DNA from: Lysobacter enzymogenes
GTDB lineage: Bacteria; Pseudomonadota; Gammaproteobacteria; Xanthomonadales; Xanthomonadaceae
Direction: 5' to 3'
DNA: 64,000 nt
Assembly: GCF_017355525.1 (NCBI RefSeq)
Contig: NZ_CP067395.1
Location: 3,689,001-3,753,000 of the forward strand
Below the pieces are notes generated by a model that worked only from the letters and a program-made list of their open reading frames with translations, was not told where the DNA came from and ran no database searches. The translations under genes and the position numbers were made by a program. Below, in pieces: positions 20,701 through 40,816 of this stretch (its first letter is position 1; the number at the start of each line of letters is the position of its first letter).

Positions 20701-21525
20701 TCAGCGCGCCAGCCCCGCCGCGCCGAAGCGATAGTCCTGCAGATCCAGCCCCAAGGTCCGGCGGATGTCCTCGCGCGCGGCGCGCGCGAACGCCGCCTGG
20801 GTCTGCGGATCCGGCGCGCGCGCGAACTGCTCCAGCTTCTCGTCCAGGTTCAACGAGCGGAACAGGAAATCGTCGGCCACCCATTGCCGCTGCGCCGGCG
20901 CCAGCCGCGCCAGCACGCCGTTGTCGGCGAACGAACCGCGCATCTGCTCGCGCAGCGCGCGCAGCGACTGCGCCGACGGCAGCGGCGCCTGGTGCACCAG
21001 CGCCCAGTTCACCGCGACGTGATAGGCGGCGACATCGGCGAGGTTGTCGTTGGACAGGCCGCGCGCCGGCAATGCGGCGGCGAAGCGGCGACGGTAATCG
21101 GCGCCGCCGGAGCGGCGGGCGAAATCCTCGGCGACGCCGCGGCTCTGCTTGCCCATCGCCGCGATCAGCGCCGCGCGCACGCGCTCGGTGGTGGCCGGGT
21201 CGCGCCGGAACGACAGGTCCGCCTGCGCGGCTTTCGCGCTCGCCTTTGCCGCCGGCTTGGCCGCGGCCGCCGCGCTGTTGCGCTGGCTCAGCGAGCGATT
21301 GATCGCCGCGTTGACCGCGGCGGTGCCGGCGGTGTTCTGCATCGCGTTCATGGACGAATTGAACGAGTCCATGTACGGCTGATAATCCTGCGCCATCGCC
21401 GGCGACGCGGCGACGCACAGCGCGACGACCGCCAGACGCGAACGCGCGCAACGCAGAAACGCGAAAGGAGCGAAGCCTCGCGGCTTCGCTCCCTCCGACT
21501 CGCGCCTTGGGCGCGAGCGCGCCAT
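20701..21525 (-). CDS. Secreted protein (DUF6683-like) at the end of the T3SS operon
   Basis: 274 residues. The ATG at 21525 overlaps the preceding stop by one base (TGATG), so it is translationally coupled to the needle-like gene. A basic N-terminus precedes a signal peptide (SRLAVVALCVAASPAMAQDY). The mature part is helical: YMDSFNSSMNAMQNTAGTAA, LADVAAYHVAVNWALVHQAP and LAPAQRQWVADDFLFRSLNL. It resembles DUF6683 proteins as I recall them, and their function is unknown. Sec export is implied, so it probably acts in the periplasm or outer membrane, unlike T3 substrates. Confidence 0.65.
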   Translation of the reverse strand: MARSRPRRESEGAKPRGFAPFAFLRCARSRLAVVALCVAASPAMAQDYQPYMDSFNSSMNAMQNTAGTAAVNAAINRSLSQRNSAAAAAKPAAKASAKAAQADLSFRRDPATTERVRAALIAAMGKQSRGVAEDFARRSGGADYRRRFAAALPARGLSNDNLADVAAYHVAVNWALVHQAPLPSAQSLRALREQMRGSFADNGVLARLAPAQRQWVADDFLFRSLNLDEKLEQFARAPDPQTQAAFARAAREDIRRTLGLDLQDYRFGAAGLAR

Positions 21526-21836
21526 CAACCCTTGCGGGCGGTGTTGGCGTTGGTGTCGCCGATGGTCTTCACCACGTTGGTGAAGGTGTTCATCATCAGC
21601 TGGAATTCCGAGACCAGGGCCTGGGTCTTGAGCATGTCGCTGGGCTTGGCGTCGGCCGGCAGGCCTTCGATCGCCTTGGTCATCTGGTCGGCCTTCTTGT
21701 CGGCGAGCTTGCCGCACAGGGTAGCCAGCGCCATCAGCCAGCCGTTCTTGCCGCCGGCCTTGGCTTCTTCGGTCTTGTTCTGCACTTCCTGATTGGCCAG
21801 GGAGTTGACGAACAGGGCGTTCACGTCGTTGCTCAT
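21525..21836 (-). CDS. sctF: Candidate T3SS needle subunit (SctF-like)
   Basis: 103 residues with a strong GGAGAA site before the ATG at 21836. An N-terminal helix (LMALATLCGKLADKKADQMT) and a turn (GLPADAKPSDM) lead to a long C-terminal helix, EFQLMMNTFTNVVKTIGDTN. The arrangement 'KPSD turn, then SE(F/Y)xLxxNxxTxxVKxxxD' matches needle proteins such as PrgI (KPSDP...SEYNLYRNAQSNTVKVFKDID). It is about 20 residues longer than usual and lacks Pro after the turn Asp. A 161-base leader could hold its own promoter, fitting a highly expressed structural subunit. EspA-type filament protein is the alternative. Confidence 0.6.
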   Translation of the reverse strand: MSNDVNALFVNSLANQEVQNKTEEAKAGGKNGWLMALATLCGKLADKKADQMTKAIEGLPADAKPSDMLKTQALVSEFQLMMNTFTNVVKTIGDTNANTARKG

Positions 21837-21997
21837 GATCTTCTCCAATGCGATGCGTTGTGCGAGATAGAGCGGTTCAGCCTTGGTCGTCGAGACCCGC
21901 CCCTGGTGTGATGCCATCTTCCGCATGGCCCCGGGTCGCAACAAGCTATGGCGTACCCTAGGTGCCGCGGCGCGAAAACCCGCGCCTGGCCTGCCTC

Positions 21998-22474
21998 TCA
22001 GCCCGCATTGCCCCAGGGATTGCGCGGCGCCGGCTTGCGCGACGCCGGCTGCGCCGGCGAATTTGCGACGGCGGTCGCGGCCTGGGCCGACTTGCGCGCG
22101 GCGTTGCGCTCGTTCAGCCATTGCGCCGCGGCTTCTTCGCCCTGCTCGCGGCGCAGGCGCGCGTACTCGTACGCGTCCTTGACCGATTCGCGGCGCAGCG
22201 GCTCCAGGGTCTCGTCGAAATTGCGCATTTGCGACTCGCGCTCGCTGGCGTCGGCGTCCGGCAGCATCGCCTCGACCGCGGCCGCCCAGTCGCGGCGCAT
22301 CGCATCCGGGTCCAGTTCGGCCGGCGCGCTGAGGTCCTGCTGCGCCAGCGCCTCCTCGAAGTGCTGCATCAACAGGCGGCGGTCTTCGCCGTTGAGCTGG
22401 GACTGCTCCTGCAGCATGGTCTCGAACGAAGCGCGCAGCTGGCGGCGCTGGTCGTCGGCGGTCTGGTCGGTCAT
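21998..22474 (-). CDS. T3SS-operon hypothetical protein, 158 residues
   Basis: An all-helical, highly charged protein: RRQLRASFETMLQEQSQLNG, then LMQHFEEALAQQDL, then LRRESVKDAYEYARLRREQG, with a Pro/Ala-rich tail ending RKPAPRNPWGNAG. There is no signal peptide or membrane helix. It lies between sctP and the needle-like gene in the same direction, 49 bases after sctP. Small helical cytosolic proteins at this place in T3SS operons are often needle chaperones or export co-factors, so that is the leading guess. No family was recognised. Confidence 0.62.
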   Translation of the reverse strand: MTDQTADDQRRQLRASFETMLQEQSQLNGEDRRLLMQHFEEALAQQDLSAPAELDPDAMRRDWAAAVEAMLPDADASERESQMRNFDETLEPLRRESVKDAYEYARLRREQGEEAAAQWLNERNAARKSAQAATAVANSPAQPASRKPAPRNPWGNAG

Positions 22475-39184: not shown

Positions 39185-40284
39185 TCGTCGAGCGGCGGCG
39201 GCAGTTCCGGCGCGCTGTCGTCGCCGTCGCGCAGGCGGCGCACGGTTTCGGCCCAGTGCAGGACCTCGGCCACAGCCTCGAAGAACTCGTTGCCGATGTA
39301 TTCGTCGAGCCCGGCGCGTTCGTTGAGGCCGCGCGCCAGCTCCACGTTCTGCAGGATCGGCACGCCGGCCTCGGCGGCGGCGCGCTTGATCGCCTCGGCC
39401 ATGTAGCCCTCGCCCTTGGCCACCACCACCGGCAGGTCGGTGATGCCGTGCTCGTACTGCAGGGCGATGGCGATGTGGGTGGGGTTGGTCACGACGACGT
39501 TGGATTGGCGGACGGCGTTGAGCATGTTCTGCTGCGACCATTCCTGATGCAACTGCCGGCGCCGGCTCTTGACGTGCGGGTCGCCTTCGTTTTCCTTGAC
39601 CTCCTGCTGGATGTCGCGCCGGCTCATGCGCAACTGCTTGAGGTAGGAGAACTTCTGGTACCACACGTCGATGGCGGAGACGAAGAAGAACACGAAGATC
39701 GTCCACACCCCGATCCGCACCAGCCCGTACCAGATGCCCGAGCCCATCGCCGCGGGCGGCGCGTACGGCAGCAGCATCAGCTGGGCCAGCATCTTGTAGA
39801 TCACGAAGCTGCCGATGCCGACCAGGGCCGCGCTCTTGATCGTGGACTTGACCAGTTCGACCAGGTTGTCCATCGAGAACATCTTCTTGACGCCCTCGGC
39901 CGGGTTCATCTTGTCCATCGCCGGCTTGAGCTTGCCCAGCGCCAGGATCGGGCCGACCTGCAGGAACTCGACCACCGCGCCGAGGAACACCGCCATCGTC
40001 AGCAGCGGCAGGGTCAGCCACAGCAGGGTTTCGAACGCCGACCCGCCGACCTCGCGCAAGGCGTCGCCGAACGGCTGGTTGATCGCCTTGAGGCTGGTTT
40101 CGAACAGGCGGATCAGCTTGAGCCGCATGAAGTCCAGCATCAGCCAGCCGCACACCATCCAGCCGAGCACCAGCACGGTGCTGGTGAGCTCCTTGCTCTT
40201 GGCGACATTGCCTTCCTTGCGCGCGTCGCGGATCTTTTTCTGGGTCGGCGGCTCGGTCTTGTCGGCGCCCTGGTCCTTCGCCAT
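39175..40284 (-). CDS. sctU: T3SS substrate-specificity switch protein SctU (HrcU)
   Basis: 369 residues. The N-terminus MAKDQGADKTEPPTQKKIRD, then ARKEGNVAKSKEL, is the family signature. Four membrane helices lie between about 33 and 210. The cytoplasmic domain has MSRRDIQQEVKENEGDPHVK, SRRRQLHQEW and the self-cleaving NPTH in VVVTNPTHIAIALQYEHGIT (Asn near 270). It cleaves itself and acts with SctP to switch substrates. Unusually it is transcribed opposite to sctQ-R-S-T, separated from them by the GST gene. The acidic C-terminal tail is DGDDSAPELPPPLDD. Confidence 0.97.
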   Translation of the reverse strand: MAKDQGADKTEPPTQKKIRDARKEGNVAKSKELTSTVLVLGWMVCGWLMLDFMRLKLIRLFETSLKAINQPFGDALREVGGSAFETLLWLTLPLLTMAVFLGAVVEFLQVGPILALGKLKPAMDKMNPAEGVKKMFSMDNLVELVKSTIKSAALVGIGSFVIYKMLAQLMLLPYAPPAAMGSGIWYGLVRIGVWTIFVFFFVSAIDVWYQKFSYLKQLRMSRRDIQQEVKENEGDPHVKSRRRQLHQEWSQQNMLNAVRQSNVVVTNPTHIAIALQYEHGITDLPVVVAKGEGYMAEAIKRAAAEAGVPILQNVELARGLNERAGLDEYIGNEFFEAVAEVLHWAETVRRLRDGDDSAPELPPPLDDQR

Positions 40285-40498
40285 GCGCGGCCCTGCTGCG
40301 GGAAGGGCACCGAGGCTAGCACGCAGGCCACAGCGCGAAAGTGGCGGGTGTCAGCAATCGCCGCCGGGCGTGCGACGGGGGGCCTGAACGCAGGCGGGGC
40401 ACGTCCACCGCACCTAGGGTCGCCCCGAGTTGGCCCTGTTGGCGCCCTGGGGCTACATTGCGCCCATCCCCCACACCGCGACCGCCCTGACCGCCCGC

Positions 40499-40816
40499 AT
40501 GAGCACCATCGGCCCCGATTCGCGCATCGACCGCGCTGGCCTCGACAGCCAGACGCTGGAAGCGCTGCGCGTCCGCGAGCCGGCGGCGCAGGGCGCGCAG
40601 GCGCCGGGCGCGGTCGCCGAGGCGGTCCCCGCGTATGCCCCGCCCGCGGTCGACCCCGGCGAGCAGACCCTCAACGCCGACGCCTGGCGCGGCGTGGCCG
40701 CCGGCGACCGCCAGTTGCCGGGCGATAGCCGCCTGGAACACGAGCTGGGCCAGCTGGACCTGTCCGCCGCCGCCGACCGCGGCGCCGAGGCGGTGCTGGA
40801 TTCGCTGACCGCCTGA
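40499..40816 (+). CDS. Hypothetical protein, 105 residues, divergent from sctU
   Basis: The ATG at 40499 gives a soluble Ala/Pro-rich protein (MSTIGPDSRIDRAGLDSQTL, later VPAYAPPAVDPGEQTLNADA) ending LEHELGQLDLSAAADRGAEA. There is no signal peptide, membrane helix or Cys. It lies at the edge of the secretion island, 214 bases from the sctU start and divergent from it. A flexible N-terminus and lack of fold would suit a secreted effector or accessory factor, but there is no positive evidence. The translation start lacks a strong site. Confidence 0.5.
   Translation: MSTIGPDSRIDRAGLDSQTLEALRVREPAAQGAQAPGAVAEAVPAYAPPAVDPGEQTLNADAWRGVAAGDRQLPGDSRLEHELGQLDLSAAADRGAEAVLDSLTA

What the first reader, a model, noticed from the sequence alone, without database searches (positions are those of the whole stretch)
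20701..40816. T3SS island with a full export core but no secretin gene
SctD, I, J, K, L, N, O, P, Q, R, S, T, U and V are all here, but no frame on either strand has the features of SctC (outer-membrane secretin), and there is no SctW gatekeeper, pilotin or obvious translocon. Either the secretin is encoded elsewhere, another secretin (type IV pilus PilQ or type II GspD) is borrowed, or the machine uses a different exit. SctD also carries an extra module and a long Ala/Pro tail where it would meet SctC.
Basis: partly seen in the sequence, partly recalled or inferred. Interest (0 to 1): 0.82.

Follow-up and report, generated by a model that had tools for sequence, protein, structure and literature searches.

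The report
Injectisome that lost its outer-membrane gate
A bacterium related to Lysobacter carries a nearly complete protein-injection machine for which searches of its whole genome find no outer-membrane pore gene of its own; comparison with relatives indicates a single past loss, and the machine is predicted to plug instead into a pore that normally serves another secretion system or a pilus, which would be a new way of building an injectisome if confirmed.

Summary
The one-contig genome holds two secretins, PilQ and GspD/XpsD, each over 900 kb away. The bare fact is published for five Lysobacter strains (PMC4657364).

New here: 60 of 395 family genomes carry this SctV; 59 have no SctC relative, and one keeps sctC between sctV and sctD. 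Secretin-less systems form one clade nested among secretin-bearing ones, indicating a single deletion, while needle, rod, ring, ruler and export genes stay. SctD's "extra module" is predicted to be a GspC/GspB/PilP-type homology-region (HR) fold, the domain that ties type II platforms to secretin N0 domains. It predates the loss. Afterwards a Phe/Tyr present in 17 of 17 secretin-bearing HR sequences is gone in 34 of 34.

Best reading: the machine likely borrows GspD, less likely PilQ. A machine ending in the periplasm is the main rival. No binding was tested.

The parts
39175..40284 (-). SctU
   Evidence: PF01312 E 1.5e-109
37680..38474 (+). SctT
   Evidence: PF01311 E 5.6e-56
37389..37655 (+). 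SctS
   Evidence: PF01313 E 1.8e-21
36323..37225 (+). SctR
   Evidence: PF00813 E 1.6e-65
35216..36319 (+). SctQ
   Evidence: PF01052 E 4.4e-12; TIGR02551 above cut-off
34618..35223 (+). response regulator (LuxR type) of the island
   Evidence: PF00072, PF00196; relatives in Lysobacteraceae, Dyella and Hahella loci
33390..34469 (+). histidine kinase of the island
   Evidence: PF02518, PF00512; relatives in 18 of 30 loci
32738..33253 (-). FliO-family protein upstream of SctV
   Evidence: PF04347 E 2.7e-9; found in 34 of 34 distinct secretin-less loci, window included
30254..32317 (-). SctV
   Evidence: PF00771 E 2.4e-191; TIGR01399 above cut-off
30123..30253 (-). 131-bp SctV-SctD junction, the place where relatives carry sctC
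   Evidence: read directly; C lies between V and D in 17 of 57 loci scanned and is absent in 40 incl. the window, 34 distinct; no SctC remnant at the junction
28617..30122 (-). SctD: FHA, two BON-like domains, HR-like domain, Ala/Pro tail
   Evidence: PF16697 E 5.3e-14; TIGR02500 above cut-off; AF2 model
28872..29033 (-). HR-like (GspC/GspB/PilP type) domain of SctD, residues 363-416 in the model's numbering (ORF numbering is one higher)
28620..28871 (-). Ala/Pro-rich C-terminal tail of SctD
   Evidence: mostly low pLDDT; a tail is present in the Lysobacteraceae and Dyella rows of the alignment and absent from most others
28039..28431 (-). needle-class protein ('x150'), between sctD and sctI (an order recalled from PrgHIJK-type clusters)
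   Evidence: hhalign to the PF09392-matching family prob 98.5, E 2.1e-15; no Pfam family of its own; found in 34 of 34 distinct secretin-less loci
27456..27881 (-). SctI (inner rod)
   Evidence: PF17001 E 8.7e-5, below cut-off; 34 of 34
26626..27426 (-). SctJ
   Evidence: PF01514 E 5.4e-27; TIGR02544 above cut-off
25985..26629 (-). SctK (by position and conservation)
   Evidence: frame found; no NCBIfam hit; found in 33 of 34
25222..25947 (-). SctL
   Evidence: NF005392 E 2.8e-18 and TIGR02499 E 2.6e-14, below cut-offs
23823..25175 (-). SctN ATPase
   Evidence: PF00006 E 1.5e-83, PF18269 E 9.7e-21
23323..23826 (-). SctO (by position; coiled coil)
   Evidence: frame read; FliJ model only E 0.041; found in 33 of 34
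22524..23315 (-). SctP (needle-length ruler)
   Evidence: HpaP PF09483 E 0.0035, below cut-off; found in 33 of 34
21998..22474 (-). small protein of unknown function before the second needle-class gene
   Evidence: relatives in 13 of 30 loci, Lysobacteraceae only; no NCBIfam hit
21525..21836 (-). second needle-class protein
   Evidence: PF09392 31.7 bits, above its 29.4 cut-off
20701..21525 (-). DUF6683 protein, by eye with a signal peptide, next to the second needle-class gene
   Evidence: PF20388 E 3.1e-13; relatives in 9 of 30 loci
40430..40816 (+). small conserved island protein
   Evidence: relatives in 10 of 30 loci, Lysobacteraceae only
40911..41633 (+). conserved T3SS-associated protein of unknown function (240 aa)
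   Evidence: relatives in 15 of 30 loci, also Dyella, Hahella, Ottowia, Azohydromonas; no family above cut-off

Best explanation
[quoted passage not shown] the gene appears to have been deleted once from between sctV and sctD in an ancestor, and the machine likely exits through a secretin borrowed from the cell's type II system (GspD/XpsD) or, less likely, its type IV pilus (PilQ), which the GspC/PilP-like domain predicted at the end of SctD would hold by its N0 domain. Shown: gene content, absence of SctC by three kinds of search, place of the missing gene, retention of the other genes. Inferred: that the loss was a single event (trees), that the SctD module is an HR fold (profiles plus AF2), that it docks a secretin (known for HR domains of GspC and GspB), and that the partner is GspD rather than PilQ (its sequence relatives are GspB and GspC). 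Untested: any binding, needle assembly or secretion.
For: Absence: two secretins only, PilQ and GspD. A SctC of the same T3SS type as query finds 16 of 395 family genomes at E up to 1e-60, down to 32% identity, but none of the 59 other genomes with this T3SS.

Loss: C lies between V and D in 17 of 57 loci; in 40 including the window (34 distinct) it is absent and no remnant is found at the junction. The secretin-less rows form one clade (100/100), with the SctC-keeping family member L151 outside it (one search agrees without L151).

Still maintained: V, D, needle-class x150, I and J in 34 of 34, and K, L, N, O, P in 33 of 34 distinct secretin-less loci. SctD dN/dS is below 1 in FHA and BON2 for 8 of 8 close pairs.

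Docking domain: T2SSB matched by 15 and T2SSC by 12 of 32 at E up to 10, best 7.1e-6 and 4.4e-4, while no family other than these and Y4YQ_C matched more than 2. Best PDB profile hit is GspC, E 3.8e-5. The seven best structural rows are GspC, GspB, PilP or a type IVa pilus-machine model chain. HR domains of GspC and GspB bind the secretin N0 domain (passages of PMC3169554, PMC9239104).

Available partners: GspD in all 60 (best E at most 6e-150); PilP, marker of the pilQ operon, in all 60 (one partial).
Confidence: 0.48

Rival explanations
1. The machine has no outer-membrane channel: it exports into the periplasm, or builds a short periplasmic needle, as proposed for the secretin-less Myxococcus systems.
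For: Only the outer-membrane part is missing. FliO is also found in Myxococcus T3SSs (passages of PMC12403147), which lack a secretin (passages of PMC3459982). The SctC-linked site of the SctD HR eroded freely.
Against: Needle-class, rod and ruler genes are all kept, whereas the Myxo systems are described as lacking SctF (PMC3459982). The HR fold is kept under some constraint. The system is nested among secretin-bearing ones.
Confidence: 0.27
2. The system is a decaying relic after loss of sctC.
For: A T3SS normally needs a secretin; loss of one essential gene could be the first step of decay.
Against: One inferred deletion, then the other genes kept in 34 of 34 or 33 of 34 distinct loci of six genera, apart from loci cut by contig or stretch ends; no SctC remnant.
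Confidence: 0.08
3. The exit is a flagellar-type L/P ring (FlgH/FlgI) or another non-secretin outer-membrane protein.
For: The genome has FlgH near FlhA, and L. enzymogenes keeps a partly working flagellar export system (passages of PMC7277350).
Against: 20 of the 60 T3SS genomes have no FlgH. Luteimonas arsenica is reported to have a T3SS-associated FliO and no canonical flagellar genes (passage of PMC12403147). No gene of the island shared by the secretin-less loci was recognised as an outer-membrane pore; not every frame was tested for it.
Confidence: 0.1
4. A highly diverged secretin that no profile recognises is encoded elsewhere.
For: Profiles can miss extreme divergence.
Against: Secretin and Secretin_N profiles and a SctC query find none, while the same SctC query finds matches at 32-35% identity in 15 other family genomes. 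Erosion of the SctC-linked HR site argues that SctC is gone.
Confidence: 0.05

Closest known systems
T3SS of Lysobacter enzymogenes, capsici, gummosus and antibioticus (PMC4657364; PMC13163355)
   Same: By description the same island; absence of the secretin and presence of only T2S and T4P secretins already stated in 2015. The 2026 paper names a secretin located with the T2SS genes as the required one.
   Different: The passages read mention neither an ancestral sctC place, a single loss, a genus that keeps sctC, needle-class genes nor an HR domain in SctD. Whole texts and supplements were not read.
Myxococcus xanthus secretin-less / 'needleless' T3SS (PMC3459982 passages; PMC12075869 abstract in listing)
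   Same: Non-flagellar T3SS without secretin; FliO present (PMC12403147).
   Different: Myxo systems are placed at the root of the NF-T3SS and lack SctF; here the system is nested among secretin-bearing ones and keeps needle-class genes and ruler.
SctC-bearing relatives of this T3SS (Dyella, Hahella, Sphingomonas, Ottowia, unnamed genus g18 = L151)
   Same: Similar gene order, SctD with HR-like domain, needle-class x150 gene, often FliO.
   Different: sctC present between sctV and sctD; Phe/Tyr kept in the HR (17 of 17).
GspC / GspB (T2SS) and PilP (T4P) homology-region domains
   Same: Predicted fold and, for GspB/GspC, sequence similarity of the SctD C-terminal domain family.
   Different: Here the domain sits at the end of an injectisome ring protein; secretin binding not shown.

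Membership tests
non-flagellar T3SS (injectisome) | core SctJ, N, Q, R, S, T, U, V in one locus | tested here: met
non-flagellar T3SS (injectisome) | SctD inner ring protein | tested here: met
   TIGR02500 above cut-off
non-flagellar T3SS (injectisome) | needle protein SctF | tested here: met
   PF09392 above cut-off for 21525-21836, NCBIfam needle model E 6.4e-5 below its cut-off; x150 linked to it by hhalign
non-flagellar T3SS (injectisome) | dedicated secretin SctC | tested here: not met
Myxococcales-type secretin-less T3SS | no secretin | tested here: met
Myxococcales-type secretin-less T3SS | no SctF needle | tested here: not met
   two needle-class genes
Myxococcales-type secretin-less T3SS | branches at the base of the NF-T3SS tree | tested here: not met
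   nested in a secretin-bearing clade; no Myxococcus row was included
GspC/GspB/PilP homology-region domain (SctD C-terminus) | fold | tested here: met
GspC/GspB/PilP homology-region domain (SctD C-terminus) | sequence similarity | tested here: met
   T2SSB 15 of 32, T2SSC 12 of 32 at E up to 10, best 7.1e-6 and 4.4e-4; GspC 7oio E 3.8e-5. The window's own member hits only Y4YQ_C above chance
GspC/GspB/PilP homology-region domain (SctD C-terminus) | binds a secretin N0 domain | not testable with these tools
   no complex prediction or binding assay available
T3SS running through GspD or PilQ | GspD and PilQ present in every secretin-less T3SS genome | tested here: met
   GspD 60 of 60 by E-value, PilP as marker for the pilQ operon 60 of 60 (its control genomes ring in none); weak test, both near universal

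The most novel reading that the evidence does not exclude
A whole lineage of injectisomes has handed its outer-membrane gate over to the type II secretion system: SctD, which already carried a GspC-like docking domain, latches onto GspD after sctC was deleted, so that two secretion machines share one pore protein.
Probability: 0.33. Interest if true: 0.86.

Novelty: new variant of a known kind. Interest (0 to 1): 0.62.

Why it matters
As of 2012, all T3SSs shown to deliver effectors into eukaryotic cells lay in the secretin-bearing branch (PMC3459982, passage). Here one inferred deletion, with a genus that still keeps the gene, separates two otherwise matching machines, so the question 'can an injectisome work without its own secretin, and how' becomes testable by gene removal in biocontrol bacteria. 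The predicted HR domain in SctD would also link T3SS, T2SS and type IV pili by one shared way of holding a secretin.

Tried and rejected
Rejected: sctC just outside the window or elsewhere. A flagellar L-ring as general exit. SctC remnants at the V-D junction: a first run (top 15 shown) gave hits down to E 6e-10 at the end of sctV, some reaching past it, because the query ORF began inside sctV and so carried V DNA read in another frame; with queries trimmed to start after V seven hits at E up to 1 remained, the best E 0.005 over 45 aa, none at the junction. The HR domain as an adaptation to the loss: rejected, since SctDs of secretin-bearing relatives match it too, and so do 19 ORFs in 50 other loci (E 1.8e-7 to 0.028; 18 of the 19 also match the SctD profile).

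Led nowhere: direct comparison of the HR with the clade's own XpsN and PilP families; single-sequence PDB search of the window's HR; PDB search for x150 and the 240-aa protein; 503 relatives of the 240-aa protein, where all names among the 120 listed say hypothetical or uncharacterized. Foldseek alone gave no hit at E below 0.001 for the HR model. The structure search with the whole SctD model was filled by FHA domains. GspD co-occurrence, 60 of 60 with T3SS against 292 of 335 without (the 60 taken as over the cut-off from their E-values), Fisher p 0.001, is not corrected for kinship or genome size and is not used as proof.

Not done: complex prediction, a GspD-versus-PilQ test, naming of the genus behind L151, a Myxococcus row in the trees.
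Full report
What is there. The window lies in a one-contig genome of 5,947,018 bases; its SctV is 95% identical to that of Lysobacter sp. yr284. Profiles identify SctU, T, S, R, Q, V, D, J, N and, below cut-off, L, I and P. SctK and SctO rest on position and conservation. A FliO-family protein precedes SctV, as reported for some other non-flagellar T3SSs including Luteimonas (passages of PMC12403147).

No secretin of its own. The Secretin profile gives two places in the genome and Secretin_N the same two proteins: a PilQ behind a PilP gene and a GspD beside XpsN (other pil and xps neighbours named by my reading). 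A SctC from the same T3SS type, used as query on 395 family genomes, matches 16 at E up to 1e-60: one is G057 (the genome of the query), the other 15 are in genera g17 and g7 at 32-35% identity. None is among the 59 other genomes with this T3SS. The bare observation is not new: de Bruijn et al. 2015 (PMC4657364, passages read) state that the T3S secretin is conspicuously absent in five Lysobacter strains with only T2S and T4P secretins, and a 2026 paper (PMC13163355, passages read) points to a secretin in the T2SS region.

A single loss. Of 80 SctV relatives fetched, 30 show the needle-class x150 gene. Of these, 16 outside Lysobacteraceae have a secretin match at the locus and 14 Lysobacteraceae loci have none. 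Whole-genome secretin lists were made for 39 of 40 genomes given, out of the 80 (one not held). In the family, 60 of 395 genomes carry this SctV at E up to 1e-170, in 7 of 54 genera. Among these 60, by my reading of the coordinates, only G057 has a secretin at the T3SS; where another genome has a listed secretin on the same contig as SctV, the nearest is about 138 kb away, and in drafts with secretins on other contigs the distance is unknown. That list was cut: five genomes, G057 among them, have one match not listed; the loci of the other four (G111, G136, G233, G370) were fetched and show no SctC. In 57 loci scanned, SctC lies between V and D in 17 and is absent in 40, the window included; these are 34 distinct loci after removing 6 duplicates. 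Trimmed SctC queries find no remnant at the junction. A V+N tree of 47 rows (two long-branched loci left out, two lacking N, six duplicates dropped) puts all secretin-less rows in one clade (100/100), with L151 of G057 outside it. The V tree of 82 rows, which has no L151, also gives one secretin-less clade inside secretin-bearing ones, though Hahella and others have long branches.

Everything else is kept. Among 34 distinct secretin-less loci, V, D, x150, I, J, FliO and Q are found in 34; K, L, N, O, P in 33 (the exception ends at a contig edge); R, S, T in 32; U in 26, several loci being cut by their ends.

What the loss did to it. In secretin-bearing systems the HR is the most conserved part of SctD (mean pairwise identity 0.45, FHA 0.30); in secretin-less ones it is not (0.49, FHA 0.63). 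A Phe or Tyr in its third strand is present in 17 of 17 distinct HR sequences with SctC, including L151, and in 0 of 34 without, replaced by ten different residues. This is one event on the tree, so it is not 34 independent observations. It fits the end of a contact with SctC. It does not tell whether a new partner replaced it, but the HR still shows mostly purifying selection in close pairs (dN/dS 0.07-0.43 in 7, 0.80 in 1 of 8).

How it likely works. The most economical account that keeps a needle, a ruler and a docking domain useful is a borrowed secretin. GspD is preferred because the HR's sequence relatives are GspB and GspC; PilQ stays possible. GspD and PilP are present in all 60 genomes, so presence cannot decide. 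The chief rival is export ending in the periplasm. A flagellar L ring is unlikely as a general answer, since 20 of 60 lack FlgH. No binding, assembly or secretion has been shown here.

Noticed in passing
window 40911-41633 (+): A 240-aa protein without any family is conserved near the T3SS from Lysobacter to Hahella and Ottowia, with 26 invariant columns in 16 sequences; 503 relatives in the protein database, names among the 120 listed all hypothetical or uncharacterized. It could be a gatekeeper, chaperone or regulator.
   Followed up: partly
window 20701-21836 (-); also L030, L038, L050, L063, L071: The second needle-class gene and the DUF6683 gene are found near each other also in Sphingomonas, Sphingobium, Azohydromonas and Pelomonas T3SS loci; there the needle-class protein often carries a long N-terminal extension.
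   Followed up: partly
window 32738-33253 (-): FliO-family protein beside SctV, a flagellar trait, in 34 of 34 distinct secretin-less loci and in Dyella.
   Followed up: partly
window 38150-39184 (+): A glutathione S-transferase-like frame lies between sctT and sctU.
   Followed up: no
L023, L025, L040, L055, L065, L066 and others: SctD-type ORFs of other T3SS loci also match the HR profile (E 1.8e-7 to 0.028; 19 ORFs in 50 loci, 18 of them SctD-like), so the HR may be widespread in SctD.
   Followed up: no
G000:C1 about 3.26 Mb: FlhA and FlgH lie within about 5 kb of each other, a flagellar gene cluster outside the window.
   Followed up: no
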